Origin: Paraescarpia echinospica
Lineage: Eukaryota > Annelida > Polychaeta > Sabellida > Siboglinidae
Assembly: GCA_020002185.1 (NCBI GenBank)
Contig: CM034533.1
Coordinates: 50,244,418-50,308,417, forward strand
Length of the DNA: 64,000 nt
Direction of reading: 5' to 3'
A program made the translations under genes and the position numbers. Shown piece after piece: positions 41,839 to 63,653 of this stretch. The notes beneath the pieces are model-generated. The model was not told the origin of the DNA, searched no databases, and saw nothing but the letters and a program-made list of their open reading frames with translations. The stretch's first letter is position 1. Every line of letters starts with the position of its first letter.

Positions 41839-41916
41839 ACTGTTATTTGCTGATTTATTTGTGCTGTCTTTATCTATGCCTCCATTTTCAGGCTTTTCTG
41901 TGAGTCCCCTGCGAAT

Positions 41917-43121: not shown

Positions 43122-43130
43122 ATCCCGATC

Positions 43131-45301
43131 AGAATTTATTTAATAACTTAACTAACTTAGTCTTTATAAAGACTGTTTCCTGTGTACTACAGCACACTTT
43201 AGGTTACAAATTTCAATTACACAGCCAACTATTTATCCTGACACGAACGCTAACATTACCGGTAGTGACCTAATTTAAATACAATCAATTACGTTACGTT
43301 AGGCTGCTTTATTTATTTAGGTTACGCCGCCCGACTATCGCCCTTGCTTAATTTTAACAACAATGCTACCTAATCAAAATATCTAGCAAGTACTGGCTTA
43401 CACAGATATTATCTTATGTAAGTAGTTTGATGGTTGTTACTTTATCTCCTATATATTCTACCACATAATCAGGTTTGTTAAATCTTGTTTTCAAATTATC
43501 GAAGCCTAAGTGAGTTACCCTATTATCACTCACTATACTAAGGTATTCTAAAATACTATAACTAACTAACTTTAAGCACAACTGCTACTCAATCTATGTT
43601 TATTGCAACTTTATGAATGATATTAAGGCAAGAATAATACTTATCAATCAGTAATTCCACTTGTTTATCAACTTTTCTGCACCACCAATTTCTACGATCT
43701 ATCTCCGCCAAATATAGCCTCAAAGTCCCAATAATTTGGGCTTCAAGGAAAAATATATTGAATGATAGGGTTATAGGTGTAACCATGGACACCAAATATA
43801 ATTGGTGTCCATTAGATGATGTACCAGACGGAAACAACAGGTGGTGATATTTCCATCAAAGTCACCAGATTGCCAGCCACCAATAAGGTCAACATAATCA
43901 CGAATACATGTTCACTTAGAAATCTTCCAAATTAATGATATGTGTATTAATGGTTCACGTGTAACAAGGTTGTGCAAATGACAATTGGAGACACCAAACT
44001 TACCCTCACTATACATTGCTTGCTGCGTTTGAAAAGAGGCCAGTGACATCATGACATGATGCTATCTGCCAGTTTCTGCACACTATAAACACATTATCTT
44101 GAAAGATGACAGTGTTGCAGCTGTGACATGTGATACGTGTAAAGCAAGTGGTATCCTAAAATATAGATATAGGTATGTGGTTGAAAGTGTAACCAATGTG
44201 GACACCAAAAGTTACACGCACAACCACAAGTTTGCAGCCCTTATCACTGCTACACATGGTATCCCATCAATTTCTTTGATCCAAGTAATACACACATTGA
44301 ACTATGCCAGGATGCATCAAATAGAATGCAAGATGTTTCATTTACTGCTTGGCACTAAAACAAATGTAGTGTTTTATTTGGAAATTAATTGGGAAGTTTT
44401 GATGTAGAATAATTGTCATGTGCCACGGTCACAATACCTAACTGATATGTTTTGTACTATTGTACACCTTCGGTCACAATACCTAACTGATATGTTTTGT
44501 GCGTTTATTTTCAATTCTATTTAATATAATGATTTAAAAATTTGCTGTGCATGCGTGCCTCGATTTTTCACAAATGCTGACACAAAATAGTATCGTGTAG
44601 CCCTATAATTAGTATATATTATAGTCGATTATGTACTTGTTGAAAAACATTCAAAAAGGCCTGCTTCCATTTTCACAAAATAGCCCACTATGCCCTAAAA
44701 ATCAAAATAGAAAGTGTCATATGGGCTGGTTGTGACGGGTAAATGTCATAGATGAAGTCTGGTGTGGGTGAGAACTTATAACATTTAGGTACTCCTGAAG
44801 TGATTTTTCAGATTGTTTGCCTAGTCTATAATAAAAAAATTTTTTTTTTACATAACACGCTTTTATTTAAAACAAACTATTATAAAACAGCTGCCTCACA
44901 GATTGTTTTCAGTCTACAAAATAAAAATCCATACAAATTACCCAATGTTAAATTCAAATTTTTGTGATTTTTTATCAATTTCATTCAAATTGAGACCATT
45001 TTGTTTTTCAATTAATTCTACTTCATGATTGACCCATTCGACCCTACATACCTGTGCATGCCATATCAAATATCATTGATAAATTTTGTGTGGGTTCTAT
45101 TAATGCATCTGTAATTGTAATTGCAAAATGTAGTAGTTTAATTGTAATTGATTTGATTTTATGTAATTGGACACAGCCCCTCGCAAAAATAATTCAACCA
45201 TAAAATTAACAGATCAATGTAGCATACGTCAGCTATATTGGTTGTGGTCGCATGGAATTAGCCTTTATCATTATTCCTACATTCTTGCAGGACTCGGGAA
45301 G
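43131..45301. other. Upstream region of the cysteine-rich gene
   Basis: No coding sequence recognised. It contains diverged copies of short repeats also seen near 34.26, 37.8 and 38.2 kb (at 44370-44470 and 44595-44630). I cannot pick out a promoter with confidence. Confidence 0.4.
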
Positions 45302-45380
45302 ATGAAGCCCAGTGGGGAGTGGCGACCCAGCCTTCTGATGGCGATGTTGGTTGCAGCCTCCATTACTACAGCACTGTCAG
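45302..45380 (+). CDS. Exon 1: signal peptide
   Basis: ATG at 45302 encodes MKPSGEWRPS, then the hydrophobic LLMAMLVAASITTALS. The exon ends CAG with donor GTAGGA at 45381, in phase 1. Joined to exon 2 the sequence continues A-C-T-D, giving a plausible cleavage after ALS-A. The frame is open upstream of the ATG but without another Met, which supports this start. Confidence 0.8.
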
Positions 45381-48300
45381 GTAGGAAATGGAATACGACA
45401 CAGCGTGGAATGTGTCAAATCCTCTCGCATTGAACTTTTGAACAGACAAACATTGCACATATGGATACTTATGTAAGTGTTTAATTAGTCTCAAAGTAAA
45501 AATAAAATACAAAACAAAAGGACCGCTCAAAAAGAGTTGAGGGACTTATCAAAAAATTAATGTACAAATAACAATACTTTGCAATCTAATGTGCGATATT
45601 TTGGGTAGGGTGTTGCCAGTTTTACTGATTATATTGTCATTACTCAATAAATATTTAAAGTTATCTGGATCATTCATATTACTAAAAAACTCGAATAATG
45701 TTCTTGTAGTTCATTAAAATATAAAGCGCATTTCATTAAAATGTGAAACTCGTTTTCTATTTCATCAGTGCAATTATAACATGTTCTAACTTCAGGTGGA
45801 GAGTAATTACATTCAATACATGCAGTTTCAAATCTGATTGGTGCCACGCCACTTCAACATTTTGCAAGTGTTGATCGGTTACATTCATTCATAATTTTGA
45901 ACTTAAAACCGTAATGTGCACATAATAATTACGTGCACGTTACGGTTTTAAGTTCAAAACCGTCAAGGAACAAACTGATTTACCCCATAAAGGTGTCTTT
46001 ACAGATATTGGGTATTTTTAAAACATATAGGTTTTATGTCCTACTCTAAGGGTCGTTGATTAATTCCTGAAAGTTTTGTGCTCTATGCTCAAGCTGTCTA
46101 ACAGGCAAACGTTAACATACTCAACGCTAGATCGATTATAGTTAGATGCTCAGCTACAAATTTAGTTTTGAACTGTTTATAGGTTCTTAGTTTGTTTCTA
46201 CTGCTATTTCTGCCATCTTTTCTATTAATAATATAAAGCCATTGCTGTTGCGTAATTCACACATAAAACATCAGTGTATTCATTTATATCCTTTATATTA
46301 ACATAGCCACCTATATAAGTCAGATTATGCAGATGCAAATCATTCTAGCGATGGTATAGTTCGTTACCCCAATTTCGTGTTCCACTTTCGAATTTCATAA
46401 TTGATCAAAACACATTCTGTCACTCTTGATATATCCATATTGTTTAAAGGACACCAGAGCCTTGTAACAGTTAACCTTTGTTCGCGAGTCGATGTTTTCC
46501 ACGCCATTTCACCCTGTACTACTGCTAATGGGGTATATTTACTCACACTTAGGAAAAATCGACAGGTCCTATTATGTATACTATCTATGACAGAATATTC
46601 TTTGGTAGCCTATCCAACACAACAGAACCACAATTTATAACAGTGAGCACCAAACCATCGAATAGTTTTGTAAAACAGTTAAGGCATTCCTCCATTACAT
46701 TTGTCTTAATAAAACCGAAGCTGTGTTCGATGCAGTAGCTACGTTTTTTACGTTCTCCTTATAATCAAGGTGTTCTGTAAAAGTATAGATGCATGCAGTG
46801 CACCTTTTTATTATATGCGTTTAGATTTCTCTCTCGTTGGTTAATACTTGACTGGTTAAAAAACAGTTGTATTCTCAATACAGGAGCGGGTTGAATATGA
46901 TAACTATGCATTTCTTCTTCCAGCGTGTACCGATGGAGCAGACAATTGTGCAACGTGCACTGGTTCAACTTGTGGCACGTGTGCAAATGGATACTATGTT
47001 GATGGAGGCGGCTCATGTGCAGGTGAATAATTGAATATACTAAACTAAAAGTCAAATTTCAATCCGTGGTAGACTAGAAATGCTTCTTCAATATATTGTT
47101 ATCAACGGAAGTAACTTATCAAAAGCGTTTTAATTTTTCATTCAAACATTAATAATCGATATTGTAGTAACTTAAATAAAAAATAATCTGTTCTACGGCC
47201 CTGGAAAATGAATGGTGATTGTGAAAAGAAATAATGTACAAAGTAGCCTATTTTCTGAGGTTTGAATAAAATAACTGTCGACGATGGAGGTACCAGTGCA
47301 GAGTGCTCCGTCTGCATGGCCGGATACTACCTAGATACCACTACGTGCACTGGTAACAAAAATACTTGTAATACTATTTTGGTTACTACACATGTTTCCT
47401 CTGCATATAGGTTGGGAAATGAAAACAACACAAAGCCTATATGTGTAACTTTGATGTTGAATTGTCAGACGTGCCATGCTTGATAATCTATGGACCCTAT
47501 CGAAAACGACTGATCTGTTTTACGGCTCTGGCCAGCGATTGGTGATAATGATGTTGTCGGTGAAAGGATGTAATATATAAATTAGCCTGTTTTTGAACAT
47601 TTGAACCATATGTCAGTATCGAGACTTGTTTATTCAGCAGGTGGTACAAAATATTTCACGTCCAATGCAGGCGCTAAGACACAATGTCCTGGCTGTTTGG
47701 AGAAATAATACCCAAATGCCACAACGCTTATTGGAGAAAATCCTACTCCTAATAATCTTGGATGCTATAAGTGTTATTTATTAATGTTATCATCAGTGTA
47801 AGAAATTAACAAAATGAACTTGTTTTGTAATTTTTAAAGAAATGACAAATTCGATAATTGTTTTTTTTTCAGCATGTGCTACTGAATGTACTGCGTGCAC
47901 TGGAGGTACAAGTGCAGAGTGCTCCGCCTGCACGGCTGGATACTACCTAGATACCACTACGTGCACTGGTAACAAAAATACTTCTAATACTATTTTGGTT
48001 ACTACACATTTTTCCTGTGCATATAGGTTGGGAAATGAAAACACAAAGCCTATATGTGTAACTTTGATGTTGAAGTGTCCGAAGTGCCATGCTTGATAAT
48101 CTATGGACCCTATCGAAAACGACTGATCTGTTCTACTGCTCTGGCCAGCGAATGGTGATAATGATGATGTTGGTGAAAGGATGTAATATATAAATTAGCC
48201 TGTTTTTATTTTTTCAGCAGTTGGTACTAAATGTTTCACGTGCAATGCAGGCGCTGAGACACAATGTCCTGGTTGTTTGGACAGTTAATACCCAAATGCC

Positions 48301-51300
48301 ACAACGCTTATTGGAAATAATCCTATTCCTACTACTCGTTTGGATGCTATAAGTATTATTTATTTATGTTATCAATGTAAGCAATTAACTAAATGAACTT
48401 GTTTTGCACTTTTTAAAGAAATGACAAATTTGATAATTGTTTTTTTAGCATGTGCTACTGAATGTACCGCGTGCACTGGAGGTACCAGTGCAGAGTGCTC
48501 TGCCTGCTCGGCCGGATACTACCTAGATACCACGACGTGCACTGGTAACAAAAATACTTCTAATACTATATTGATTACTACACGTGTTTCTTCTGCATAT
48601 AGGTTGGGAAATGAAAACAACACAAAGCCTATATGTGTAAATTTGATGTTGATGTGTCAGACATGCCATGCATGATAATCTATGGAACCTATGGAAAACG
48701 ACTGATCTGGTCTACTGCTCTGGCCAGCCAATGNNNNNNNNNNNNNNNNNNNNNNNNNNNNNNNNNNNNNNNNNNNNNNNNNNNNNNNNNNNNNNNNNNN
48801 NNNNNNNNNNNNNNNNNNNNNNNNNNNNNNNNNNNNNNNNNNNNNNNNNNNNNNNNNNNNNNNNNNNNNNNNNNNNNNNNNNNNNNNNNNNNNNNNNNNN
48901 NNNNNNNNNNNNNNNNNNNNNNNNNNNNNNNNNNNNNNNNNNNNNNNNNNNNNNNNNNNNNNNNNNNNNNNNNNNNNNNNNNNNNNNNNNNNNNNNNNNN
49001 NNNNNNNNNNNNNNNNNNNNNNNNNNNNNNNNNNNNNNNNNNNNNNNNNNNNNNNNNNNNNNNNNNNNNNNNNNNNNNNNNNNNNNNNNNNNNNNNNNNN
49101 NNNNNNNNNNNNNNNNNNNNNNNNNNNNNNNNNNNNNNNNNNNNNNNNNNNNNNNNNNNNNNNNNNNNNNNNNNNNNNNNNNNNNNNNNNNNNNNNNNNN
49201 NNNNNNNNNNNNNNNNNNNNNNNNNNNNNNNNNNNNNNNNNNNNNNNNNNNNNNNNNNNNNNNNNNNNNNNNNNNNNNNNNNNNNNNNNNNNNNNNNNNN
49301 NNNNNNNNNNNNNNNNNNNNNNNNNNNNNNNNNNNNNNNNNNNNNNNNNNNNNNNNNNNNNNNNNNNNNNNNNNNNNNNNNNNNNNNNNNNNNNNNNNNN
49401 NNNNNNNNNNNNNNNNNNNNNNNNNNNNNNNNNNNNNNNNNNNNNNNNNNNNNNNNNNNNNNNNNNNNNNNNNNNNNNNNNNNNNNNNNNNNNNNNNNNN
49501 NNNNNNNNNNNNNNNNNNNNNNNNNNNNNNNNNNNNNNNNNNNNNNNNNNNNNNNNNNNNNNNNNNNNNNNNNNNNNNNNNNNNNNNNNNNNNNNNNNNN
49601 NNNNNNNNNNNNNNNNNNNNNNNNNNNNNNNNNNNNNNNNNNNNNNNNNNNNNNNNNNNNNNNNNNNNNNNNNNNNNNNNNNNNNNNNNNNNNNNNNNNN
49701 NNNNNNNNNNNNNNNNNNNNNNNNNNNNNNNNNGATTTTCTTGTTAAACATAACTTGATAAACCCATCTCAACATGGGTTTCTAAAAGCGAGGTCATGCT
49801 TAACAAATATGTTATGTTTTTTGGAAGATATCACTAATTGGGTAGATGATGGATCACCAGTAGATATCATCTACTTAGATTTTCAAAAAGCTTTCGACAA
49901 AGTGCCACATCAGAGATTACTGCTTAAACTAAAATCCCATGGCATAGGAAATGGTATAATTAACTGGATAGAAAAATGGCTGATTGACAGAAGACAACGG
50001 GTAGTTGTTGATGGGGAGGCTTCAAACTGGAAATCAGTTTGAGTGGGGTTCCACAGGGATCAGTACTGGGACCTATATTATTCTTAATATATATAAACGA
50101 TTTGGACGATGATATAGCTAGCAAGGTGTTGAAATTTGCAGATGATACAAAAGTGTTTAGAATGATTAAAAGTGATGGAGATAGACAGCATTTACAAGAT
50201 GATCTTGACAGGTTGATCAAATGGTCTGAAAAGTGGCAAATGCTGTTCAATTTTGGGAAATGTAAATGCCTCCACACAGGACATGGGAACGAAGAGGTAG
50301 AATATACAATGGGGGGTACTGTACTAAGTACTACTGTAAAAAGAAAGACTTAGAGGGCCGACAATTAGTGCTGACATGAAGGTTTCAGAGCAGTGTGGAA
50401 TTGCAGCTTCAAAGGGAAATCAAATCCTTGGATTGATTAGGCGAAATATAGCATATAAAGAAAAGAACTAATAATACCGCTGTACAAAACAATAGTTAGG
50501 CCTCATTTAGAATATTGTATACAAGCGTGGAGGCCATACCGCAAGAAGGACATAGATATGCTAGAAAGAGTACAGAGGAGAGCGACTAAAATGATACCAA
50601 AACTGAGGTATCTTAGTTATGAAAAACGCCTAAAAGAATGTGGTTTAACAACACTAGAGACCAGGAGATTGAGAGGAGATCAGATAGAAGTGTTTAAAAT
50701 ATTGAATGGTTATGAAAATATTGATAGAAATATGTTTTTTCAGTTAAGAAAGATAGAAAGATTAGAGGACATGAAGTTACATTAGTAAAGGAGCAGTGTA
50801 GATTAGACGTGAGAAAGTTCTCATTTTCACAAAGGACTGTGAATGAATGGAACAGATTATCTGATGATTGTGTGGGTTCTAGTAGTGTGAATATGTTTAA
50901 AAATAAAATCGACACATACCTCAGAAGGGCTGGATATATGTAGATAAAAGGGTTGGACTCTCGATAAGCCAAAGGGCTTCCTTGTCCACCTGCCATCTAG
51001 AGTTAATTGTCTGGATGGCAATCTTGTTAAATCTTGTTAAATCTTGTAAACTTTGATGTTGAAGTGTCAGACGTGCCATGCATGATAATCTATGGACCCT
51101 ATCGAAAACGACTGATCTGTTCTACGGCTCTGGCCAGCGATTGGTGATAATGACGATGATGGCGAAAGAAAATAGTGTACAAAGTAACCTATTTTCCAAG
51201 GTTCGAACAAAATGCCTGTATGTGTGTTTTTAACAGATGCTACTGAATATTTCATGTGGAATGCAGGTACCTAAATACCACAATGTGCATTGAAAACAAA

Positions 51301-54300
51301 TCATACACCTATTACTCTTTTGGATGCTATAACTGTTATTTATTAATATTATCATCAATGGAACCAATGAACTTGTTTGGCACATTTTAAAGAAATTACA
51401 AACTCGATAATTGTTTTTTTAGCATGTGCTACTGAATGTACCGCGTGCACTGGAGGTACCAGTGCAGAGTGCTCCGCCTGCACGACCGGATACTACCTAG
51501 ATACCACGACATGCACTGGTAACAAAAATACATCTAATACTATTTTGTTACTACACATTTTTCCTCTGCATATACGTTGGGAAATGACTGCAACACAAAA
51601 CCTATATGTGTAACTTTGATGTTGAAGTGTCCGAAGTGCCATGCTTGATAATCTATTGACCCTATCGAAAACGACTGATCTGTTCTACTACTCTGGCCAG
51701 CGAATGGTGATAATGATGATGTTGTTGAAAGGATGTAATATATAAATTAGCCTGTTTTTGTTTTTTGAGCAGTTGGTACTAAATGTTTCACGTGCAATGC
51801 AGTCGCTAAGACACAATGTACTGGTTGTTTGGGCAGTTATTACCCAAATGCCACAGTGCTTATTGAAAAAATCCTACTCCTACTACTCGTTTGGATGCTA
51901 TAAGTATTAATTATTTATGTTATCAATGTAAGCAATTAACTAAATGAACTTGTTTTGCACTTTTTAAAGAAATGACAAATTTGATAATTGTTTTTTTTAG
52001 CATGTGCTACTGAATGTACCGCGTGCACTGGAGGTACCAGTGCAGAGTGCTCCGCCTGCACGGCTGGATACTACCTAGATACCACTACGTGCATTGGTAA
52101 CAAAAATACTTCTAATACTATTTTGGTTACTACACATTTTTCCTCTGCATATAGGTTGGGAAATGAAAGCAACACAAAGCCTATATGTGTAACTTTGATG
52201 TTGAAGTGTCCGAAATGCCATGCTTGATAATCTACGGACCCTATCAAAAACGACTGATCTGTTCTACTGCGCTTGCCAGCCAATGGTTATAATGACGATG
52301 TTGGTGAAAGTATGTAATATATAAATTAGCCTGTTTTTGAAGGTTTGAACCATATGTCAGTATCGAGACTTGTTTATTCAGCAGGTGGTACTAAATATTT
52401 CACGTCCAATGCAGGCGCTAAGACAAAATGTCCTGGCTGTTTGGAAAAATAATACCCAAATGCCACAACGCTTATTGGAAAAAATTACATTCCTAATAAT
52501 CTTGGATGCTATAAGTGTTATTTATTAAAGTTATCATCAGTGTAAGAAATTAAGTAAATGAAATTGTTTTGTACTTTTTAAAGAAATAACAAATTCGATA
52601 ATTTTTTTTTTTCAGCATGTGCTACTGAATGTACCGCATGCACTGGAGGTACCAGTGCAGAGTGCTCCGCCTGCACGACCGGATACTACCTAGATACCAC
52701 GACATGCACTGGTAAGACAAATACTTCTAATACTATTTTGGTTACTACATGTATTTCTTCTGCATATAGGTTGGGAAATGAAAACAACACAAAGCCTATA
52801 TGTGTAACTTTGGTGTTGATGTGTCAGACATGCCATGCATGATAATCTATGGTCCCTATCGAAAACGACTGATCTGTTCTAATGCTCTGGCCAGCGAATG
52901 GTGATAATGATGATGTTGGTGAAAGGATGTAATCTATAAATTAGCCCGTTTTTATTTTTTTAGCAGTTGGTACTAAATGTTTCACGTGCAATGCAGGCGC
53001 TGAGACACAATGTCCTGGTTGTTTGGACAGTTAATACCCAAATGCCACAATGCTTATTGGAAAAAATCCTATTCCTACTACTCGTTTGGATGCTATAAGT
53101 ATTATTTATTTATGTTATCAATGTAAGCAATTAACTAAATGAACTTGTTTTGCACTTTTTAAAGAAATGCCAAATTTGATAATTGTTTTTTTAGCATGTG
53201 CTACTGAATGTACCGCGTGCACTGGAGGTACCAGTGCAGAGTGCTCTGCCTGCTCGGCCGGATACTACCTAGACACCACGACGTGCACTGGTAACAAAAA
53301 TACTTCTAATACTATATTGATTACTACACGTGTTTCTTCTGCATATAGGTTGGGAATTAAAAACAACACAAAGCCTATATGTGTAACTTTGGTGTTGAAG
53401 TGTCCGAAGTGCCATGCTTTATAATCAATGGACCCTATCGAAAACGACTGATCTGTACTAATGCTCTGGCCAGCGAATGGTGATAATGATGATGTTGGTG
53501 AAAGGATGTAATATATAAATTAGCATGTTTTTATTTTTTCAGCAGTTGGTACTAAATGTTTCACGTGCAATGCAGGCGCTGAGACACAATGTCCTGGTTG
53601 TTTGGACAGTTAATACCCAAATGCCACAACGCTTATTGGAAACAATCCTATTCCTACTACTCGATTGGATGCTATAAGTATTATTTATTTATGTTATCAA
53701 TGTAAGCAATTAACTAAATGAACTTGTTTTGCACTTTTTAAAGAAATGACAAATTTGATAATTGTTTTTTTTAGCATGTGCTACTGAATGTACCGCGTGC
53801 ACTGGAGGTACCAGTGCAGAGTGCTCCGCCTGCACGGCTGGATACTACCTAGATACCACTACGTGCATTGGTAACAAAAATACTTCTAATACTATTTTGG
53901 TTACTACACATTTTTCCTCTGCATATAGGTTGGGAAATGAAAGCAACACAAAGCCTATATGTGTAACTTTGATGTTGAAGTGTCCGAAATGCCATGCTTG
54001 ATAATCTACGGACCCTATCAAAAACGACTGATCTGTTCTACTGCGCTTGCCAGCCAATGGTTATAATGACGATGTTGGTGAAAGTATGTAATATATAAAT
54101 TAGCCTGTTTTTGAAGGTTTGAACCATATGTCAGTATCGAGACTTGTTTATTCAGCAGGTGGTACTAAATATTTCACGTCCAATGCAGGCGCTAAGACAA
54201 AATGTCCTGGCTGTTTGGAAAAATAATACCCAAATGCCACAACGCTTATTGGAAAAAATTACATTCCTAATAATCTTGGATGCTATAAGTGTTATTTATT

Positions 54301-57300
54301 AAAGTTATCATCAGTGTAAGAAATTAAGTAAATGAAATTGTTTTGTACTTTTTAAAGAAATAACAAATTCGATAATTTTTTTTTTTCAGCATGTGCTACT
54401 GAATGTACCGCATGCACTGGAGGTACCAGTGCAGAGTGCTCCGCCTGCACGACCGGATACTACCTAGATACCACGACATGCACTGGTAAGACAAATACTT
54501 CTAATACTATTTTGGTTACTACATGTATTTCTTCTGCATATAGGTTGGGAAATGAAAACAACACAAAGCCTATATGTGTAACTTTGGTGTTGATGTGTCA
54601 GACATGCCATGCATGATAATCTATGGTCCCTATCGAAAACGACTGATCTGTTCTAATGCTCTGGCCAGCGAATGGTGATAATGATGATGTTGGTGAAAGG
54701 ATGTAATCTATAAATTAGCCCGTTTTTATTTTTTTAGCAGTTGGTACTAAATGTTTCACGTGCAATGCAGGCGCTGAGACACAATGTCCTGGTTGTTTGG
54801 ACAGTTAATACCCAAATGCCACAATGCTTATTGGAGAAAATCCTATTCCTACTACTCGTTTGGATGCTATAAGTATTATTTATTTATGTTATCAATGTAA
54901 GCAATTAACTAAATGAACTTGTTTTGCACTTTTTAAAGAAATGCCAAATTTGATAATTGTTTTTTTAGCATGTGCTACTGAATGTACCGCGTGCACTGGA
55001 GGTACCAGTGCAGAGTGCTCTGCCTGCTCGGCCGGATACTACCTAGACACCACGACGTGCACTGGTAACAAAAATACTTCTAATACTATATTGATTACTA
55101 CACGTGTTTCTTCTGCATATAGGTTGGGAATTAAAAACAACACAAAGCCTATATGTGTAACTTTGGTGTTGAAGTGTCCGAAGTGCCATGCTTTATAATC
55201 AATGGACCCTATCGAAAACGACTGATCTGTACTAATGCTCTGGCCAGCGAATGGTGATAATGATGATGTTGGTGAAAGGATGTAATATATAAAGTAGCAT
55301 GTTTTTATTTTTTCAGCAGTTGGTACTAAATGTTTCACGTGCAATGCAGGCGCTGAGACACAATGTCCTGGTTGTTTGGACAGTTAATACCCAAATGCCA
55401 CAACGCTTATTGGAAACAATCCTATTCCTACTACTCGATTGGATGCTATAAGTATTATTTATTTATGTTATCAATGTAAGCAATTAACTAAATGAACTTG
55501 TTTTGCACTTTTTAAAGAAATGACAAATTTGATAATTGTTTTTTTAGCATGTGCTACTGAATGTACCGCGTGCACTGGAGGTACCAGTGCAGAGTGCTCT
55601 GCCTGCTCGGCCGGATACTACCTAGATACCACGACGTGCACTGGTAACAAAAATACTTCTAATACTATATTGATTACTACACGTGTTTCTTCTGCATATA
55701 GGTTGGGAAATGAAAACAACACAAAGCCTATATGTGTAACTTTGGTGTTGAAGTGTCCGAAGTGCCATGCTTTATAATCAATGGACCCTATCGAAAACGA
55801 CTGATCTGTTCTAATGCTCTGGCCAGCGAGTAGTGATAATGATGATGTTGGTGAAAGGATGTAATATATAAATTAGCCTGTTTTTGAAGGTTTGAACCAT
55901 ATGTCAGTATCGAGACTTGTTTATTCAGCAGGTGGTACTAAATATTTCACGTGCAATGCAGGCGCTAAGACACAATGTCCTGGTTGTTTGGACAGTTAAT
56001 ACCCAAATGCCACAATGCTTATTGGAAAAAATCCTACTCCTACTACTCGTTTGGATGCTATAAGTATTATTTATTTATGTTATCAATGTAAGCAATTAAC
56101 TAAATGAACTTGTTTTGCACTTTTTAAAGAAATGACAAATTTGATAATTGTTTTTTTAGCATGTGCTACTGAATGTACCGCGTGCACTGGAGGTACCAGT
56201 GCAGAGTGCTCTGCCTGCACGGCCGGATACTACCTAGATACCACGACGTGCACTGGTAACAAAAATAGTTCTAATACTATATTAATTACTACACGTGTTT
56301 CTTCTGCATATAGGTTGGGAAATAAAAACAATAACACCAAGCGAGTATGTGTAACCTTAATGTTGAAGTGTCAGACTTGCAACCCTTGATAATCTGTCGA
56401 CACTTGCGAAAACGTATCATCTGTTCTACGGCTACAGTCAACGATTGGTGATGATGACGATGATGGCGAAAGAAAATAGTGTACAAAGTAACCTATTTTC
56501 CAAGGTTCGAACAAAATGCCTGTATCTACACTAGTGTTTTTTTAACAGATGCTACTGAATATTTCACGTAGAATGCAGGTACTAAGACAAAATGTCTTGG
56601 CTGTAAATATAGATACTACCTAAATGCCACAATGTGCATTGAAAACAAATCATACACCTATTACTCTTTTGGATGCTATAACTGTTATTTATTAATATTA
56701 TCATCAATGGAAGCAATAAACTAAATGAACTTGTTTGGCACATTTTAAAGAAATTACAAACTCGATAATTGTTTTTATGTGGGACAGTGTTCCTTGTTAA
56801 TGTAGTGGTGTTACTGACTCAGAATCGTAGCTAGTTTGCTGTAAATAACAAGGCAGATGTAAGTTTGTACCAGAGCTTTGTATTAAGCCAAACATTAAAC
56901 CATACAATACAATATGTACATGAATTGCCTTAGCCTATATAATTCTAATAAATAATTTACCGCAAAGGTGAGGGGAACCAACCACACACAGGTGGTGGAA
57001 CTCACCCATAAATTGCCAAACTAAAACCCTATGCAGAAGGGGAAAGCGTCAATGCGCCCAAAAACCCCTTCGCTACCTCATGTAGGGAGATGAATACCAG
57101 AAAACGCCCGTGAGGTCAGTAGGAATTGTCCAATGTCAACCGTATAACTACAAACATTCTATACAAATATCCAACATGCATATACAATGTAACATGTAAA
57201 AACGCCAAACATAATTCTACCAAAAAACCTGCAATTGTAAACATGACATGTTAAGTTGACAAGACATGCTAGCGGTCAGATGCAGCAAACAAATCCCACT

Positions 57301-60300
57301 AGAGATTAATCACCTAGGTGCAGATGGGGTAGGCGGGTGGGAACAACAGATCTAGATGCAATGTAACCGCAAATTATCGCAGGATATAATAAACTCTCTC
57401 AAATCAGAGTAAACGATCAATATGTAAGAGACAAATGTAATACCTTTTCTCCGTGACAATTTCAAAGTGGGAAGCTAAAATGGTGTCATGCCTTTATATA
57501 CGCAGGAATTGTCACGTGACTTAGTTCCCCGGATATACCGTAAAAACAAAATTTAGGAGTCGGGCCAATGCCCACATAAAAGTCATTTGATGTGCATCAT
57601 AATGTCATATTTTCAGCATGTGCTACTGAATGTACCTCTTGCACTGGAGGTACCAGTGCAGAGTGCTCCACCTGCACGACCGGATACTACCTAGATACCA
57701 CGACATGCACTGGTAAGACAAATACTTCTAATACTATTTTGGTTACTACACGTATTTCTTCTGCATATAGGTTGGGAAATGAAAACATCACAAAGCCTAT
57801 ATGTGTAACTTTGGTGTTGATGTGTCAGACATGCCATGCATGATAATCTATGGTCCCTATCTAAAACGACTGATCTGTTCTAATGCTCTGGCCAGCGAAT
57901 GGTGATAATGATGATGTTGGTGAAAGGATGTAATATATAAATTAGCCTGTTTTTATTTTTTGAGCAGTTGGTACTAAATGTTTCACGTGCAATGCAGGCA
58001 CTAAGACACAATGTCCTGGTTGTTTGGACAGTTAATACCCAAATGCCACAACGCTTGTTGGAAAAAATCCTATTCCTACTACTCGTTTGGATGCTATAAG
58101 TATTATTTATTTATGTTATCAATGTAAGCAATTAACTAAATGAACTTGTTTTGCACTTTTTAAAGAAATGACAAATTTTACAATTGTTTTTTTAGCATGT
58201 GCTACTGAATGTACCGCGTGCACTGGAGGTACCAGTGCAGAGTGCTCTGCCTGCACGGCCGGATACTACCTAGATACCACGACGTGCACTGGTAACAAAA
58301 ATACTTCAAATACTATATTGATTACTACACGTGTTTCTTCTGCATATAGGTTGGGAAATGAAAACATCACAAAGCCTATATGTGTAACTTTGGTGGTGAT
58401 GTGTCAGACATGACATGCATGATAATCTATGGAACCTATGGAAAACGACTGATCTGTTCTACTGCTCTTGCCAGCCAATGGTGATAATGGTTATGTTGGT
58501 GAAAGTATGTAATATATAAATTAGCCTGTTTTTGAAGATTTGAACCATATGTCAGTATCGAGACTTGTTTATTCAGCAGGTGGTACTAAATATTTCACGT
58601 CCAATGCAGGCGCTAAGACAAAATGTCCTGGCTGTTTGGACAAATAATACCCAAATGCCACAACGCTTATTGGAAAAAATTATATTCCTAATAATCTTGG
58701 ATGCTATAACTGTTATTTATTAATATTATCATCAATGGAAGCAATAAACTAAATGAACTTGTTTGGCACATTTTAAAGAAATTACAAACTCGATAATTGT
58801 ATTTTCAGCATGTGCTACTGAATGTACCTCTTGCACTGGAGGTACCAGTGCAGAGTGCTCCGCCTGCACGACCGGATACTACCTAGATACCACGACATGC
58901 ACTGGTAAGACAAATACTTCTAATACTATTTTGGTTACTACACGTATTTCTTCTGCATATAGGTTGGGAAATGAAAACATCACAAAGCCTATATGTGTAA
59001 CTTTGGTGTTGATGTGTCAGACATGCCATGCATGATAATCTATGGTCCCTATCTAAAACGACTGATCTGTTCTAATGCTCTGGCCAGCGAATGGTGATAA
59101 TGATGATGTTGGTGAAAGGATGTAATATATAAATTAGCCTGTTTTTATTTTTTTAGCAGTTGGTACTAAATGTTTCACGTGCAATGCAGGCGCTGAGACA
59201 CAATGTCCTGGTTGTTTGGACAGTTAATACCCAAATGCCACAATGCTTATTGGAAAAAATCCTATTCCTACTACTCGTTTGGATGCTATAAGTATTATTT
59301 ATTTATGTTATCAATGTAAGCAATTAACTAAATGAACTTGTTTTGCACTTTTTAAAGAAATGACAAATTTGATAATTGTTTTTTTAGCATGTGCTACTGA
59401 ATGTACCGCGTGCACTGGAGGTACCAGTGCAGAGTGCTCTGCCTGCTCGGCCGGATACTACCTAGACACCACGACGTGCACTGGTAACAAAAATACTTCT
59501 AGTACTATATTGATTACTACACGTGTTTCTTCTGCATATAGGTTGGGAAATAAAAACAACACAAAGCCTATATGTGTAACTTTGGTGTTGAAGTGTCCGA
59601 AGTGCCATGCTTTATAATCAATGGACCCTATCGAAAACGACTGATCTGTTCTAATGCTCTGGCCAGCGAATGGTGATAATGATGATGTTGGTGAAAGGAT
59701 GTAATATATAAATTAGCCTGTTTTTATTTGTTCAGCAGTTGGTACTAAATGTTTCACGTGCAATGCAGGCGCTGAGACACAATGTCCTGGTTGTTTGGAC
59801 AGTTAATACCCAAATGCCACAACGCTTATTGGAAACAATCCTATTCCTACTACTCGATTGGATGCTATAAGTATTATTTATTTATGTTATCAATGTAAGC
59901 AATTAACTAAATGAACTTGTTTTGCACTTTTTAAAGAAATGACAAATTTGATAATTGTTTTTTTAGCATGTGCTACTGAATGTACCGCGTGCACTGGAGG
60001 TACCAGTGCAGAGTGCTCTGCCTGCTCGGCCGGATACTACCTAGATACCACGACGTGCACTGGTAACAAAAATACTTCAAATACTATATTGATTACTACA
60101 CGTGTTTCTTTTGCATATAGGTTGGGAAATCAAAACAATAACACCAAGCGAGTATGTGTAACCTTAATGTTGAAATGTCAGACTTGCAACCCTTGATAAT
60201 CTGTCGACACTTGCGAAAACGTATCATCTGTTCTACGGCTACAGCCAACGTTTGGTGATGATGACGATGATGGCGAAAGAAAATTGTGAACAAAGTAACC

Positions 60301-63300
60301 TATTTTCCAAGGTTCGAACAAAATGCCTGTATCTACATTAGTGTTTTTTTAACATATGCTACTGAATATTTCACGTAGAATGCAGGTACTAAGACACAAT
60401 GTCTTGGCTGTAAATATAGATACTACCTAAATGCCACAATGTGCTTTGAAAACAAATGATACACCTATTACTCTTTTGGATGCTATAACTGTTATTTATT
60501 AATATTATCATCAATGGAAGCAATAAACTAAATGAACTTGTTTGGCACATTTTAAAGAAATTACAAACTCGATAATTGTTTTTTCAGCATGTGCTACTGA
60601 ATGTACCTCTTGCACTGGAGGTACCAATGCAGAGTGCTCCGCCTGCACGACCGGATACTACCTAGATACCACGACATGCACTGGTAAGAAAAATACTTCT
60701 AATACTATTTTGGTTACTACACGTATTTCTTCTGCATATAGGTTGGGAAATGAAAACAACACAAAGCCTATATGTGTAACTTTGGTGTTGATGTGTCCGA
60801 AGTGCCATGCTTTGTAATCAATGGACCCTATCGAAAACGACTGATCTGTTCTACTGCTCTGGCCAGCGAATGGTGATAATGATGATGTTGGTGAAAGGAT
60901 GTAATATATAAATTAGCCTGTTTTAATTTTTTCAGCAGTTGGTACTAAATGTTTCACGTGCAATGCAGGCGCTGAGACACAATGTCCTGGTTGTTTGGAC
61001 AGTTAATACCCAAATGCCACAAAGCTTATTGGAAAAAATCCTATTCCTACTACTCGTTTGGATGCTATAAGTATTATTTATTTATGTTATCAATGTAAGC
61101 AATTAACTAAATGAACTTGTTTTGCACTGTTTAAAGAAATGACAAATTTGATAATTGTTTTTTTAGCATGTGCTACTGAATGTACCGCGTGCACTGGAGG
61201 TACCAGTGCAGAGTGCTCTGCCTGCTCGGCCGGATACTACCTAGATACCACGACGTGCACTGGTAACAAAAATACTTCTAATACTATATTGATTACTACA
61301 CGTGTTTCTTCTACATATAGGTTGGGAAATGAAAACAACACAAAGCCTATATGTGTAACTTTGGTGTTGATGTGTCCGAAGTGCCATGCTTTGTAATCAA
61401 TGGACCCTATCGAAAACGACTGATCTGTTCTACTGCTCTGGCCAGCGAATGGTGATAATGATGATGTTGGTGAAAGGATGTAATATATAAATTAGCCTGT
61501 TTTAATTTTTTCAGCAGTTGGTACTAAATGTTTCACGTGCAATGCAGGCGCTGAGACACAATGTCCTGGTTGTTTGGACAGTTAATACCCAAATGCCACA
61601 ACGCTTGTTGGAAAAAATCCTATTCCTACTACTCGTTTGGATGCTATAAGTATTATTTATTTATGTTATCAATAAAAGCAATTAACTAAATGAACTTGTT
61701 TTGCACTTTTTGAATAAATGACAAATTTTACAATTGTTTTTTTAGCATGTGCTACTGAATGTACCGCGTGCACTGGAGGTACCAGTGCAGAGTGCTCCGC
61801 CTGCACGGCTGGATACTACCTAGATACCACTACGTGCACTGGTAAAAAAAATACTTCTAATACTATTTTGGTTTCTACACATTTTTCCTGTGCATATAGG
61901 TTGGGAAATGAAAACACAAAGCCTATATGTGTAACTTTGATGTTGAAGTGTCCGAAGTGCCATGCTTTATAATCAATGGACCCTATCGAAAACGACTGAT
62001 CTGTTCTACTGCTCTGGCCAGCGAATGGTGATAATGATGATGTTGGTGAAAGGATGTAATATATCAATTAGCCTGTTTTTATTTTTTCAGCAGTTGGTAC
62101 TAAATGTTTCACGTGCAATGCAGGCGCTAAGACACAATGTCCTGGTTGTTTGGACAGTTAATACCCAAATGCCACAACGCTTGTTGGAAAAAATCCTATT
62201 CCTACTACTCGTTTGGATGCTATAAGTATTATTTATTTATGTTATCAATAAAAGCAATTAACTAAATGAACTTGTTTTGCACTTTTTGAATAAATGACAA
62301 ATTTTACAATTGTTTTTTTAGCATGTGCTACTGAATGTACCGCGTGCACTGGAGGTACCAGTGCAGAGTGCTCTGCCTGCACGGCCGGATACTACCTAGA
62401 TACCACGACGTGCACTGGTAACAAAAATACTTCAAATACTATATTGATTACTACACGTGTTTCTTTTGCATATAGGTTGGGAAATCAAAACAATAACACC
62501 AAGCGAGTATGTGTAACCTTAATGTTGAAATGTCAGACTTGCAACCCTTGATAATCTGTCGACACTTGCGAAAACGTATCATCTGTTCTACGGCTACAGC
62601 CAACGATTGGTGATGATGACGATGATGGCGAAAGAAAATAGTGTACAAAGTAACCTATTTTCCAAGGTTCGAACAAAATGCCTGTATCTACACTAGTGTT
62701 TTTTTAACAGATGCTACTGAATATTTCACGTGGAATGCAGGTACTAAGACACAATGTCTTGTCTGTAAATATAGATACTACCTAAATGCCACAATGTGCA
62801 TTGAAAACAAATCATACACCTATTTCTCTTTTGGATGCTATAACTGTTATTTATTAATATTATCATCAATGGAAGCAATTAAATAAATGAACTTGTTTGG
62901 CACATTAAAATAAATTACAAACTCGATAATTGTTTTTTCAGCATGTGCTACTGAATGTACTGCATGCACTGGAGGTACCAGTGCAGAGTGCTCTGCCTGC
63001 ACGACCGGATACTACCTAGATACCACGACGTGCACTGGTAACAAAAATACTTCTAATACTATATTGATTACTACACGTGTTTCTTCTGCATATAGGTTGG
63101 GAAATGAAAACAACACAAAGCCTATATGTGTAACTTTGATGTTGATGTGTCAGACATGCCATGCATGATAATCTATGGAACCTATGGAAAACGACTGATC
63201 TGTTCTACTGCTCTGGCCAGCCAATGGTGATAATGATGATGTTGGTGAAAGGATGTAATATATAAATTAGCCTGTTTTTGAAGGATTGAACCATATGTCA

Positions 63301-63653
63301 GTATCGAGACTTGTTTATTCAGCAGGTGGTACTAAATATTTCACGTCCAATGCAGGCTCTAAGACAAAATGTCCTGGCTGTTTGGACAAATAATACCCAA
63401 ATGCCACAACGCTTATTGGAAAAAATTATATTCCTAATAATCTTGGATGCTATAAGTGTTAATTATTAATGTTATCATCAGTGTAAGAAATTAATTAAAT
63501 GAAATTGTTTTGTACTTTTTAAAGAAATGACAAATTCGATAATTGTTTTTTTTTCAGCATGTGCTACTGAATGTACCGCGTGCACTGGAGGTACCAGTGC
63601 AGAGTGCTCCGCCTGCACGGCTGGATACTACCTAGATACCACGACGTGCACTG
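45302..63653 (+). CDS. Secreted protein with tandem 32-residue six-cysteine modules (multi-exon, 3' end beyond window)
   Basis: A signal-peptide exon (45302-45380) is followed by a 99-nt exon (46924-47022) and at least 22 intact 96-nt A exons between 47873 and 63653. All boundaries are phase 1, so any number of exons can be joined in frame. Each A exon encodes C-x3-C-x2-C-x7-C-x2-C-x10-C; exon 2 has C-x6-C-x2-C-x4-C-x2-C-x11-C. The product would be an extracellular cysteine-rich rod resembling furin-like, growth-factor-receptor or TNFR-type repeats. I do not recognise a named orthologue or infer a function. No transmembrane or GPI signal is seen, because the 3' end is outside the window. The array is interrupted by a CR1 copy beside an assembly gap (48734-51047) and an insertion at 56.8-57.6 kb, so the true exon number is larger. 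An alternative reading as many small single-exon genes is less likely (see rejected items). Confidence 0.8.
45480..46720 (-). pseudogene. Non-LTR reverse transcriptase remnant inside intron 1
   Basis: Minus-strand pieces read SKYTPLAVVQGEMAWKTSTR and EQRLTVTRLWCPLNNMDISR (46546-46364), and further left SGVAPIRFETACIECNYSPP followed by CYNCTDEIENEFHILMKC (about 45860-45720). The latter is the C-terminal Cys/His region of many invertebrate non-LTR RTs (GVAPIR.ETGRYE...C..C...IEDE.H.L..C). Frames are broken throughout. It lies antisense within the first intron. Confidence 0.75.
45895..45959. repeat. 27-bp-arm hairpin in intron 1
   Basis: TTTTGAACTTAAAACCGTAA plus TGTGCAC (45895-45921) pairs with GTGCACG... 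(45933-45959) with one mismatch. The loop is 11 nt. It sits in the retroelement remnant and looks like a local inverted duplication. Confidence 0.93.
46924..47022 (+). CDS. Exon 2: six-cysteine module
   Basis: Acceptor TTCTTCTTCCAG precedes 46924 and donor GTGAAT follows 47022. The 99-nt phase 1-1 exon encodes A-CTDGADNCATCTGSTCGTC, then ANGYYVDGGGSCA. Cysteine spacing differs from the A exons, but the C..C and GYY landmarks are shared, so it is probably the least derived member of the array. Confidence 0.8.
47281..47352 (+). pseudogene. A1: chimeric A exon without acceptor
   Basis: The 3' two thirds of an A exon (GGTSAECSVCMAGYYLDTTT) with donor GTAACA is fused to intron sequence of the C type (TTTGAATAAAATAACTGTCG). 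No AG acceptor precedes it, so it should be skipped. Confidence 0.75.
47873..47968 (+). CDS. A exon (A2)
   Basis: Acceptor TTTTTTTTCAG, donor GTAACA. The module has all six cysteines and the TAGYY variant at positions 20-24. It is the first intact A exon after exon 2. Confidence 0.8.
48449..48544 (+). CDS. A exon (A3)
   Basis: Acceptor TTTTTTAG, donor GTAACA, six cysteines, SAGYY variant. It is the last intact exon before the assembly gap. Confidence 0.8.
48734..49733. other. Assembly gap, exactly 1000 N
   Basis: A round-number run of N, probably a placeholder of unknown true length. Open frames reported across it are meaningless. It falls between a B/A unit of the array and the body of a CR1 copy. 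Confidence 0.99.
49734..51047 (+). mobile_element. CR1 retrotransposon, 3' part, inserted in the exon array
   Basis: The plus strand reads FLVKHNLINPSQHGFLKARS, VDIIYLDFQKAFDKVPHQRL, GVPQGSVLGPILFLIYINDL, KFADDTKVF, RRATKMIPKL and FSFSQRTVNEWNRLSDDC. It ends with the tail AATCTTGTTAAATCTTGTTA at about 51030-51047. It closely matches the minus-strand CR1 at 39-40.3 kb. The right junction runs straight into array intron sequence (AACTTTGATGTTGAAGTGTC). The left junction is hidden in the gap. Frameshifts lie near 50040, 50345 and 50780. Confidence 0.92.
51237..51270 (+). pseudogene. C-type exon remnant, internally deleted
   Basis: After acceptor TTTTTAACAG the sequence encodes DATEYFMWNAG and then jumps to CTAAATACCACAATGTGC, having lost the middle of the C exon. 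It is not usable. Confidence 0.6.
51423..51518 (+). CDS. A exon (A4)
   Basis: Acceptor TTTTTTTAG, donor GTAACA, six cysteines, TTGYY variant. First A exon after the CR1 insertion. Confidence 0.8.
51770..51865 (+). pseudogene. B exon without the stop codon
   Basis: The only complete B copy in which the TAA is TAT, so the full 96-nt frame is open: VGTKCFTCNAVAKTQC, then TGCLGSYYPNATVLI. It still lacks a GT donor (TTATTGAAAAA) and its acceptor is the weak TTGAG. It shows what the ancestral B module looked like. Confidence 0.65.
52001..52096 (+). CDS. A exon (A5)
   Basis: Acceptor TTTTTTTTAG, donor GTAACA, TAGYY variant, Thr31 changed to Ile. First exon of the 1774-bp duplicated block. Confidence 0.8.
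52616..52711 (+). CDS. A exon (A6)
   Basis: Acceptor TTTTTTCAG, strong donor GTAAGA, TTGYY variant, six cysteines. Confidence 0.8.
53195..53290 (+). CDS. A exon (A7)
   Basis: Acceptor TTTTTTTAG, donor GTAACA, SAGYY variant, six cysteines. Confidence 0.8.
53775..53870 (+). CDS. A exon (A8), duplicate of A5
   Basis: Lies 1774 bp downstream of A5 and is identical to it, including Ile31. Donor GTAACA. Confidence 0.8.
54390..54485 (+). CDS. A exon (A9), duplicate of A6
   Basis: Lies 1774 bp downstream of A6. Donor GTAAGA, TTGYY variant. Confidence 0.8.
54969..55064 (+). CDS. A exon (A10), duplicate of A7
   Basis: Lies 1774 bp downstream of A7. Donor GTAACA, SAGYY variant. Confidence 0.8.
55548..55643 (+). 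CDS. A exon (A11)
   Basis: Acceptor TTTTTTTAG, donor GTAACA, SAGYY variant, six cysteines. Confidence 0.8.
56160..56255 (+). CDS. A exon (A12)
   Basis: Acceptor TTTTTTTAG, donor GTAACA, TAGYY variant. Its downstream intron carries the divergent CAATAACACCAAGCGAGTAT block shared with A17 and A21. Confidence 0.8.
56549..56641 (+). pseudogene. C-type exon, in-frame stop
   Basis: After acceptor TTTTTTTAACAG the 93-nt frame reads DATEYFT then TAG, where the copy at 62711 has Trp. It ends ATTGAAAAC with no donor. It lacks the first cysteines of the A module. Confidence 0.7.
56774..57590. mobile_element. Insertion in array intron, TGTGGG...CCCACA termini
   Basis: Between ATAATTGTTTTTA and TAAAAGTC the normal array intron is interrupted by about 815 bp of unrelated sequence. 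It starts TGTGGGACAGTG and ends CAATGCCCACA, with inverted termini and TA on both sides. A TATA-like CCTTTATATACG lies near 57490. It could be a solo LTR (TG...CA) or a non-autonomous DNA transposon with a TA target site. No coding sequence seen. The A12-A13 distance is 1457 bp instead of about 615. Confidence 0.7.
57617..57712 (+). CDS. A exon (A13)
   Basis: Acceptor ATATTTTCAG, donor GTAAGA. CTSC variant at position 7, Thr at position 18, TTGYY. Six cysteines kept. Confidence 0.78.
58196..58291 (+). CDS. A exon (A14)
   Basis: Acceptor TTTTTTTAG, donor GTAACA, TAGYY variant. Confidence 0.8.
58809..58904 (+). CDS. A exon (A15)
   Basis: Acceptor GTATTTTCAG, donor GTAAGA, CTSC and TTGYY variants, the same subfamily as A13 and A18. 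Confidence 0.8.
59388..59483 (+). CDS. A exon (A16)
   Basis: Acceptor TTTTTTTAG, donor GTAACA, SAGYY variant. Confidence 0.8.
59967..60062 (+). CDS. A exon (A17)
   Basis: Acceptor TTTTTTTAG, donor GTAACA, SAGYY variant, followed by the divergent AACACCAAGCGAG intron type. Confidence 0.8.
60356..60448 (+). pseudogene. C-type exon, lost acceptor and stop
   Basis: The acceptor AACAG has become AACAT, and ACGTAG gives an in-frame stop as in the copy at 56549. Not usable. Confidence 0.65.
60588..60683 (+). CDS. A exon (A18)
   Basis: Acceptor TTTTTTCAG, donor GTAAGA, CTSC variant, Ser13 changed to Asn, TTGYY. Confidence 0.8.
61167..61262 (+). CDS. A exon (A19)
   Basis: Acceptor TTTTTTTAG, donor GTAACA, SAGYY variant. 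Confidence 0.8.
61746..61841 (+). CDS. A exon (A20)
   Basis: Acceptor TTTTTTTAG, donor GTAAAA (only copy with this donor), TAGYY variant. Confidence 0.78.
62322..62417 (+). CDS. A exon (A21)
   Basis: Acceptor TTTTTTTAG, donor GTAACA, TAGYY variant, followed by the divergent AACACCAAGCGAG intron type. Confidence 0.8.
62711..62803 (+). pseudogene. C-type exon with open frame but no donor
   Basis: Acceptor TTTTTTAACAG. The 93-nt frame encodes DATEYFTWNAGTKTQC, then LVCKYRYYLNATMCI, open throughout. It keeps only three cysteines, and the 3' edge ATTGAAAAC has no GT, so normal exon definition is unlikely. Confidence 0.65.
62942..63037 (+). CDS. A exon (A22)
   Basis: Acceptor TTTTTTCAG, donor GTAACA, TTGYY variant. 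Confidence 0.8.
63558..63653 (+). CDS. A exon (A23), last in window
   Basis: Acceptor TTTTTTTTCAG, donor GTAACA, TAGYY variant. A further B copy starts at 63936, so the array continues past the window. Confidence 0.8.

What the first reader, a model, noticed from the sequence alone, without database searches (positions are those of the whole stretch)
45302..63653. Gene built from a runaway array of identical phase 1-1 six-cysteine exons
A signal-peptide exon and a distinct first module are followed by at least 22 intact 96-nt exons. They encode nearly the same 32-residue module, each with good splice sites and symmetric phase. Adding or removing units keeps the frame, so copy number can vary freely between individuals. 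Introns are as similar as exons, which points to recent amplification and homogenisation. I recognise no named family with this exact cysteine spacing; a surface, mucus, adhesive or defence protein are all open possibilities.
Basis: partly seen in the sequence, partly recalled or inferred. Interest (0 to 1): 0.85.

Follow-up and report, generated by a model that had tools for sequence, protein, structure and literature searches.

The report
Mucin-like gene with giant exon array
A worm gene for a mucin-4-like cell-surface protein appears to have replaced its usual sugar-carrying repeat with about 170 copies of one small cysteine-rich exon, each copy separated by the remains of a dead sister exon, so the locus shows how an animal can build a giant surface protein by copying an exon.

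Summary
The signal exon, a distinct first module and exactly 22 open 96-nt phase 1-1 exons lie in the window. In the assembly the array runs on for 87.8 kb: 168 open copies over 103.6 kb, no stop, all 1,008 cysteines kept, AG acceptor in 168 of 168 and GT donor in 167. Between copies lies a dead sister exon: none of 168 keeps a GT donor and 155 have a stop. The live exon is under purifying selection (pN/pS 0.26, against 1.16 for the dead exon). Downstream, in compatible phase, come EGF, NIDO, AMOP-like, VWD with a GDPH site, MUC4-type C8-3, EGFs, a SEA-like part and a transmembrane segment, collinear with tubeworm "mucin-like protein". The module is of the known furin-like/VSP class. Best reading: a MUC4-like membrane protein, probably of an annelid, whose mucin repeat is replaced by a Thr/Cys-rich exon array. 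Two paralogues nearby show short runs of other repeated modules before assembly gaps. Unplaced contigs carry rearranged arrays, suggesting copy-number alleles. Expression and true copy number are untested.

The parts
45302..45380 (+). Signal-peptide exon (coding part) MKPSGEWRPSLLMAMLVAASITTALS|G, ends in phase 1 before GTAG
   Evidence: sequence; hydrophobic core LLMAMLVAASIT; no signal-peptide predictor was run; a 151-base query over it matches contig C495 at 100% and two paralogues at 90-93%
46924..47022 (+). First six-cysteine module M1 (CTDGADNCATCTGSTCGTCANGYYVDGGGSCA), 99 nt, phase 1-1
   Evidence: sequence; homologous exon in paralogue p32
47285..47352 (+). Decayed 5'-truncated A copy
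47873..47968 (+). A exon 1
48449..48544 (+). A exon 2
48734..49733 (.). 1000-N assembly gap inside the array
49734..51050 (+). Non-LTR retrotransposon fragment inside the array; looks like the same element family as 40144-43139 (-)
   Evidence: sequence by eye; related copy on contig C174
51423..51518 (+). A exon 3
51772..51865 (+). Dead B exon copy that happens to be open but has no GT donor
52001..52096 (+). A exon 4
52616..52711 (+). A exon 5
53195..53290 (+). A exon 6
53775..53870 (+). A exon 7
54390..54485 (+). A exon 8
54969..55064 (+). A exon 9
55548..55643 (+). A exon 10
56160..56255 (+). A exon 11
57617..57712 (+). A exon 12 (after an insertion of roughly 0.85 kb)
58196..58291 (+). 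A exon 13
58809..58904 (+). A exon 14
59388..59483 (+). A exon 15
59967..60062 (+). A exon 16
60588..60683 (+). A exon 17
61167..61262 (+). A exon 18
61746..61841 (+). A exon 19
62322..62417 (+). A exon 20
62711..62803 (+). Example of the B3 type of dead exon (one of the open ones); AAAACA where a donor would be
62942..63037 (+). A exon 21
63558..63653 (+). A exon 22; the array continues beyond the window to 151493 in the same numbering (C3:50395910)

Best explanation
This is the 5' part of one large gene for a MUC4-like (NIDO-AMOP-VWD) type I membrane protein, most likely of an annelid. Its N-terminal repeat region is not an ordinary mucin repeat. It is an array of about 168 near-identical 32-residue six-cysteine modules of the furin-like/VSP class, one module per phase 1-1 exon. 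The array grew and is reshuffled by unequal exchange between roughly 600-bp units, each holding one live exon (A) and one dead sister exon (B). Because the live exon is symmetric, any number of units keeps the frame. Proposed working: the array forms a long, acidic, Thr/Ser-rich, disulfide-braced N-terminal chain; the VWD domain is cut at GDPH as proposed for MUC4; and the C-terminal EGF/SEA/transmembrane part tethers the chain to the cell surface as a protective or adhesive coat. Shown from sequence: exon anatomy, open frames, selection on A, decay of B, downstream domains, compatible phases. Inferred: joint splicing of all units, unequal exchange as the cause, GDPH cleavage, O-glycosylation, coat function, copy-number alleles.
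For: 168 open A copies, 0 stops; AG 168 of 168, GT 167 of 168. 0 of 168 B copies have GT at or within a few bases of the matching place, though 167 of 168 keep an AG. A pN/pS 0.262 against 1.16 for 151 gap-free B copies; 0 of 31 amino-acid-changing variants touch a cysteine. A donor phase 1 fits the first EGF exon at 152155. Pfam: EGF 9e-39, NIDO 2e-16, VWD in two exon pieces above cut-off, C8-3_MUC4 9e-8. The order of exons matches tubeworm mucin-like proteins from about 154987 to 198076; transmembrane segment and tail align to three of them. Best homologues of the 3' part: Lamellibrachia and Ridgeia mucin-like proteins, 40-48%. The VWD ORF reads YGDPHINTLDG; cleavage of human MUC4 at GDPH is called putative in PMC8660890 (passages). 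Array protein: S+T 35.5%, Cys 18.75%, 3 K+R against 503 D+E in 5,376 residues.
Against: No RNA evidence at all: that the A exons are joined to one another and to the EGF exons is not shown. One A donor is ATAAAA (113069). The assembly has a 1000-N gap and may have dropped, added or reordered units. AMOP scores below its Pfam cut-off (20.3 against 25), so does the one SEA-like piece that matched (22.9 against 26.4), two other SEA-like pieces did not match SEA, and the Ig-like piece is below cut-offs. None of the 18 tubeworm relatives carries the module pattern or matches the array region, so the fusion is seen in this one genome only; but several of those models look incomplete at the N-terminus and the search accepted only proteins of about 790-2,520 residues, so relatives with long arrays would have been missed. 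A classical mucin repeat needs Pro, and the array has 2 Pro in 5,376 residues.
Confidence: 0.72

Rival explanations
1. Two genes: a secreted array protein that ends within or just after the array, followed by a separate MUC4-like gene that starts at the EGF exons.
For: The last A copy (151896) has lost its acceptor, and the tubeworm relatives seen show EGF domains but no module before NIDO.
Against: The donor of the last open A exon (151493) and the EGF exon at 152155 are in the same phase, so the spliced reading stays open; in the 204 kb read, the only match to the signal exon lies before the array. No signal peptide was noticed by eye between array and EGF exons, but no predictor was run.
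Confidence: 0.13
2. The array is a menu of alternative exons (Dscam-like): each transcript uses one or few A exons.
For: Near-equal exons of one length, each with good splice sites.
Against: Symmetric 96-nt exons need no mutual exclusion, and copies are almost identical in protein (27 distinct sequences among 168), so choosing one would add little variety.
Confidence: 0.08
3. A non-expressed satellite that captured a coding exon; the open frames only reflect recent copying.
For: Tandem units, many at 99% or more (106 of 166 units have such a partner); rare A variants are nearer to neutral (23 changing, 10 silent) than common ones (8 and 9).
Against: Neutral parts of the unit differ by about 10% on average while the A protein is held (pN 0.026, pS 0.100), and the B exon in the very same units has decayed.
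Confidence: 0.05
4. Assembly artefact: copy number inflated by mis-joined reads or by alleles placed in a row.
For: Gap inside the array; four unplaced contigs hold more array.
Against: Copies carry distinct variants in one continuous stretch; the contigs differ in unit order and are not simple copies of the main array.
Confidence: 0.08

Closest known systems
Mucin-4 / MUC4-like NIDO-AMOP-VWD membrane proteins (including annelid 'mucin-like protein')
   Same: Large N-terminal repeat region, NIDO, AMOP-like, VWD with GDPH, C8-3_MUC4, EGF domains, transmembrane segment and tail in the same order.
   Different: The repeat region is cysteine-rich furin-like/VSP modules, one per exon, with almost no Pro; MUC4's repeat is recalled as a Ser/Thr/Pro repeat inside one exon.
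Furin-like / Giardia VSP cysteine-rich repeats (Pfam PF03302)
   Same: Module class: cysteine-rich CxxC modules, Pfam score above cut-off for M1 plus 14 modules.
   Different: About 25-42% identity to the proteins listed, many of them protist; modules here are near-identical and encoded by separate exons of an animal gene.
Human LPA kringle IV type 2 coding VNTR
   Same: In-frame exon-intron unit repeated in tandem inside a gene; 1-40 units per allele (PMC11462820, start of abstract in search listing).
   Different: Unit is 5.6 kb with kringle domains; here about 0.6 kb, more than 160 units, and each unit carries a dead exon.
Tetrahymena 90-bp phase-2 LRR exon arrays
   Same: Clonal expansion of exons of one exact length and one intron phase, shuffled by recombination (PMC6564038, passages).
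   Different: 1 to 51 such exons per gene in T. thermophila, spread over many LRR genes; here one animal gene with 168 copies of a six-cysteine exon.
Multi-module proteins of Paralvinella palmiformis and Intoshia linei
   Same: Matched by the modules; dozens of cysteine-rich modules in animals recalled as annelid or annelid-allied.
   Different: Modules are divergent, and Pfam found no MUC4-type domain, nor VSP, in the three proteins scanned.

Membership tests
MUC4-like NIDO-AMOP-VWD membrane protein family | NIDO domain | tested here: met
   61 bits against cut-off 25
MUC4-like NIDO-AMOP-VWD membrane protein family | AMOP domain | tested here: inconclusive
   20.3 bits, below cut-off 25; collinear with tubeworm AMOP region at 31-51% identity in the three proteins listed
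MUC4-like NIDO-AMOP-VWD membrane protein family | VWD domain with GDPH site | tested here: met
   Two exon pieces at 23.5 and 24.6 bits against 22.9; GDPH read in the ORF
MUC4-like NIDO-AMOP-VWD membrane protein family | MUC4-type C8-3 domain | tested here: met
   31.7 bits against 25
MUC4-like NIDO-AMOP-VWD membrane protein family | C-terminal transmembrane segment and tail | tested here: met
   Kyte-Doolittle 3.12 over 19 residues; tail aligns to P0122, P0127 and P0133; no BLAST hit of the tubeworm proteins on this exon
Mucin in the strict sense (Pro/Thr/Ser-rich repeat) | Ser/Thr/Pro-rich tandem repeat | tested here: not met
   S+T 35.5% but 2 Pro and 1,008 Cys in 5,376 residues; so it is not filed as a PTS mucin
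Furin-like/VSP repeat class (PF03302) | Profile score over the curated cut-off | tested here: met
   81.3 bits against 31.4, 12 stretches, for M1 plus 14 modules; three modules alone 23.9
Giardia VSP proper | Conserved short cytoplasmic tail CRGKA (recalled) | tested here: not met
   Tail reads KAVKKLKVPPTPVDD...; so not a Giardia-type VSP
Coding exon VNTR (LPA KIV-2 kind) | Tandem in-frame exon unit | tested here: met
   168 symmetric exons
Coding exon VNTR (LPA KIV-2 kind) | Copy number differs between alleles | tested here: inconclusive
   Contigs C174, C1140, C1230 and C495 show other unit orders, but allelism is not proven
Coding exon VNTR (LPA KIV-2 kind) | Units are transcribed and spliced together | not testable with these tools
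   no RNA data

The most novel reading that the evidence does not exclude
A new way to build a mucin-like coat: instead of a Pro/Thr/Ser repeat within one exon, a MUC4-type membrane protein carries some 170 or more acidic, Thr-rich, Lys/Arg-poor, disulfide-braced modules, grown as an array of alternating live and dead exons. Neighbouring sister genes have begun or completed their own amplification of other six-cysteine exons, so this gene family repeatedly turns whichever symmetric module it holds into a variable-length surface polymer.
Probability: 0.45. Interest if true: 0.8.

Novelty: new variant of a known kind. Interest (0 to 1): 0.7.

Why it matters
If transcribed as one message, this gene would have at least 170 exons before the EGF part, nearly all alike, a strong case of a protein grown by exon copying. 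Each unit holds its own internal control: a live exon kept clean and a dead sister exon beside it that decayed, so selection and neutral drift can be compared unit by unit. It also suggests that a mucin-type N-terminal region can be replaced by disulfide-braced modules. Repeated modules in two paralogues offer further cases in one genome.

Tried and rejected
Rejected: Dscam-like choice of exons (little variety between copies). Rejected: pure satellite (selection on A, decay of B). Rejected: 'introns as similar as exons'. Rejected: naming the species; a 1.09-Gb tubeworm, Paraescarpia echinospica (PMC8476170, passages), was considered, but tubeworm relatives are only 40-48% identical and the published contig counts do not obviously fit. 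A search for mitochondrial COX1 in the genome found nothing, and two number searches in papers found nothing. Structure: AlphaFold2 on one 33-residue module gave pLDDT 58.2 and pTM 0.28, so no fold claim and no fold search. PDB sequence search gave only a weak R-spondin-1 match, E 0.037. A first Pfam query had one extra Gly per module from a wrong join and scored 21 bits for VSP, below cut-off; the corrected query is. A first script for B exons timed out and was replaced; one search set no score threshold, and a recheck gave scores of 69 to 73 for five copies and more than 100 for the rest, with no GT near the donor place in any. Paper searches for a description of such an array showed none in the rows listed (10 of 40, 48: 3 of 3, 79: 10 of 111, 80: 1 of 1); they cover only the open library.

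Not reached: copy number of the paralogue exons, number of MUC4-type C8-3 loci, the rest of contigs C495 and C174, and whether the paralogues have MUC4 3' parts; the genome machine stayed busy.
Full report
Numbering. Positions above 64000 continue the window numbering into the fetched neighbouring DNA (window plus L009-L022, 204,000 bases, C3:50244418-50448417). Genome position is 50244417 plus the number given.

Observation. The window holds an ATG at 45302, a signal-like exon ending in phase 1 at 45380, a first module exon at 46924-47022, and 22 full-length A exons at 47873-63653, each 96 nt and phase 1-1. The module is ACATECTACTGGTSAECSACTAGYYLDTTTCT with spacing C-x3-C-x2-C-x7-C-x2-C-x10-C. 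A truncated relic precedes the first copy. A 1000-N gap (48734-49733) and a non-LTR retrotransposon fragment (49734-51050) break the array, so its true length there is unknown.

Extent. The same exon continues to 151493. In all, 169 places match; 168 are open and full-length, and the last (151896) is decayed and has lost its acceptor. The 168 span 103,621 bases. None has a stop; AG is kept in 168 of 168 and GT in 167 of 168. There are 44 distinct DNA and 27 distinct protein versions. Spacing is 540-629 bp in all but three of 168 intervals, and a scan of the intervals found no further copy with A-like score (N stretches removed).

The dead sister exon. Between successive A copies lies a second exon-like stretch, B, sorted into three types. 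Of 168 copies none has GT at the matching donor place or within a few bases of it, while 167 keep an AG at the start. 155 have a stop, 12 are open (one of these frame-shifted) and one has no acceptor. Five copies are short or weak matches (scores 69-73 against a median of 182). In the one unit tested, B aligns to A with score 50 against at most 24 in 30 shuffles. In paralogue p31 two module types alternate and both are alive, which fits the idea that B was once a coding partner of A.

Selection. Over all pairs of the 168 copies pS is 0.100 and pN 0.026. The same measure on 151 gap-free B copies gives 0.127 and 0.147. Within single B types the values were uneven: B1 0.008 and 0.035, B2 0.017 and 0.012, B3 0.015 and 0.026. 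Counting each codon variant once, A has 31 changing and 19 silent, B 61 and 10, Fisher p 0.004. Rare A variants alone (23 changing, 10 silent) look closer to neutral than common ones (8 and 9). None of the 31 changing variants hits a cysteine, p 0.0016 if variants fell at random over the 32 codons. Copies are related by exchange, so these figures are guides and not independent tests. Recent exchange is visible as well: 106 of 166 units have a partner at 99% or more and 24 are identical to another.

The rest of the gene. After the array come five phase 1-1 EGF exons (152155-155104), NIDO pieces (about 155900-158000), AMOP-like pieces (158603-161267), VWD pieces with GDPH (162127-164943), MUC4-type C8-3 (167445-167648), an Ig-like piece (173771-173975), more EGFs up to 195628, SEA-like exons near 196.5-198.1 kb and a transmembrane exon with tail ending near 202147. 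Pfam gives EGF, NIDO, VWD and C8-3_MUC4 over their cut-offs; AMOP, SEA and the Ig-like piece fall below theirs, and two further SEA-like pieces gave no SEA match. Tubeworm mucin-like proteins map in order onto 154987-198076 (all 18 were compared, three were listed). No tubeworm hit passed the threshold on the transmembrane exon; it was aligned separately to three of them. None of the 18 matches the array region, and none holds the module pattern; several of these models look incomplete at the N-terminus. That the array and this part form one protein is inferred from phase, order and the single matching signal exon.

Relatives. The 3' part finds proteins named as Lamellibrachia satsuma and Ridgeia piscesae first: 18 of the 120 rows listed (164 proteins passed), 40-48% identity, followed by MUC4-like proteins of many other animals. 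This points to an annelid; the species is not identified. The search accepted only proteins of about 790-2,520 residues, so relatives with long arrays would be missed. The modules alone find distant proteins, mostly unnamed metagenome entries and protists, about 25-42% identity in the 120 rows listed of 158. A longer query also finds Paralvinella palmiformis and Intoshia linei proteins with divergent modules (120 rows listed of 453); Pfam finds neither a MUC4-type domain nor VSP in those three.

Paralogues. The signal exon occurs at 100% on contig C495 and at 90-93% at two places 0.57 and 0.70 Mb downstream on the same chromosome. Paralogue p31 shows three X exons (96 nt) alternating with two A-like exons (102 nt), all open, and then 5,000 N. 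Paralogue p32 shows an M1-like exon and four Y exons (99 nt, 98-100% identical, introns 84-98%) and then 1,000 N. DNA homology with the focal gene is seen for the signal exon in both, M1 in p32 and A in p31. The lengths of their arrays are unknown. Their 3' parts were not reached, so it is not known that they are MUC4-like.

Alleles. Contigs C1230 and C1140 were read whole, and 10 kb each of C495 (of 72,463) and C174 (of 47,436). They hold 107 more A copies: 0 stops, 105 AG, 107 GT, 106 with all six cysteines. By best match of units, C1230 ends with the same last six units as the main array but a different order before them. C174 carries units 1, 5, 3, 4, 8 where the main array has 1 to 8. C1140 lacks two units inside an otherwise matching run. 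Best matches among near-identical units are not always unique. This is what alleles of different length would look like, but duplicated loci or assembly error are not excluded.

Mechanism. The modules give a 5,376-residue chain: 28% Thr, 35.5% Ser plus Thr, 18.75% Cys, 503 acidic and 3 Lys/Arg residues, no N-glycosylation motif. By analogy with MUC4, described as putatively cut at GDPH into a repeat-bearing alpha part and a membrane-bound beta part (PMC8660890, passages), the array would be the outer, releasable coat and the EGF/SEA/transmembrane part its anchor. Copy number changes by unequal exchange would alter coat length without touching the frame. Coat function, glycosylation and cleavage are inference.

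Known or new. Exon arrays of one size and phase are known in Tetrahymena LRR genes, and coding exon repeats of variable number in human LPA. Furin-like/VSP modules and MUC4-like proteins are both known. New here, as far as four paper searches and three protein searches show in the rows listed (34, 36, 63), is their union in one animal gene at this scale, with a live and a dead exon in each unit. I rate it a new variant of a known kind.

Noticed in passing
window 40144-43139 (-): A non-LTR retrotransposon with endonuclease and (below cut-off) reverse transcriptase matches and an upstream ORF without a Pfam match; similar-looking pieces sit inside the array (49734-51050) and near 170-173 kb and 175.8-177.5 kb.
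   Followed up: partly
window 29245-29909 (+): A TatD-related DNase sequence split over two reading frames (Pfam 6e-15, and 5e-5 below cut-off), probably a disrupted gene or retrocopy.
   Followed up: no
window 1-429, 7595-9134, 22028-23125: Three minisatellite arrays with 25-26 bp units.
   Followed up: no
window 56256-57616 and contig C1140 about 11921-13281: A-to-A spacing is 1,457 bp in both places against about 600 elsewhere, so the same insertion of roughly 0.85 kb probably lies in both arrays.
   Followed up: partly
L031 (C3:50863400-50868399): Paralogue with alternating live X and A-like exons, period about 785 bp, running into 5,000 N; long simple repeats in its introns.
   Followed up: partly
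L032 (C3:50986800-50991799): Paralogue with an M1-like exon and further six-cysteine Y exons; four Y exons are seen in L032 plus L033 before an assembly gap.
   Followed up: partly
position 113069 (C3:50357486): One of 168 A exons has lost its donor (ATAAAA): an early step of the decay that B shows, or an assembly error.
   Followed up: no
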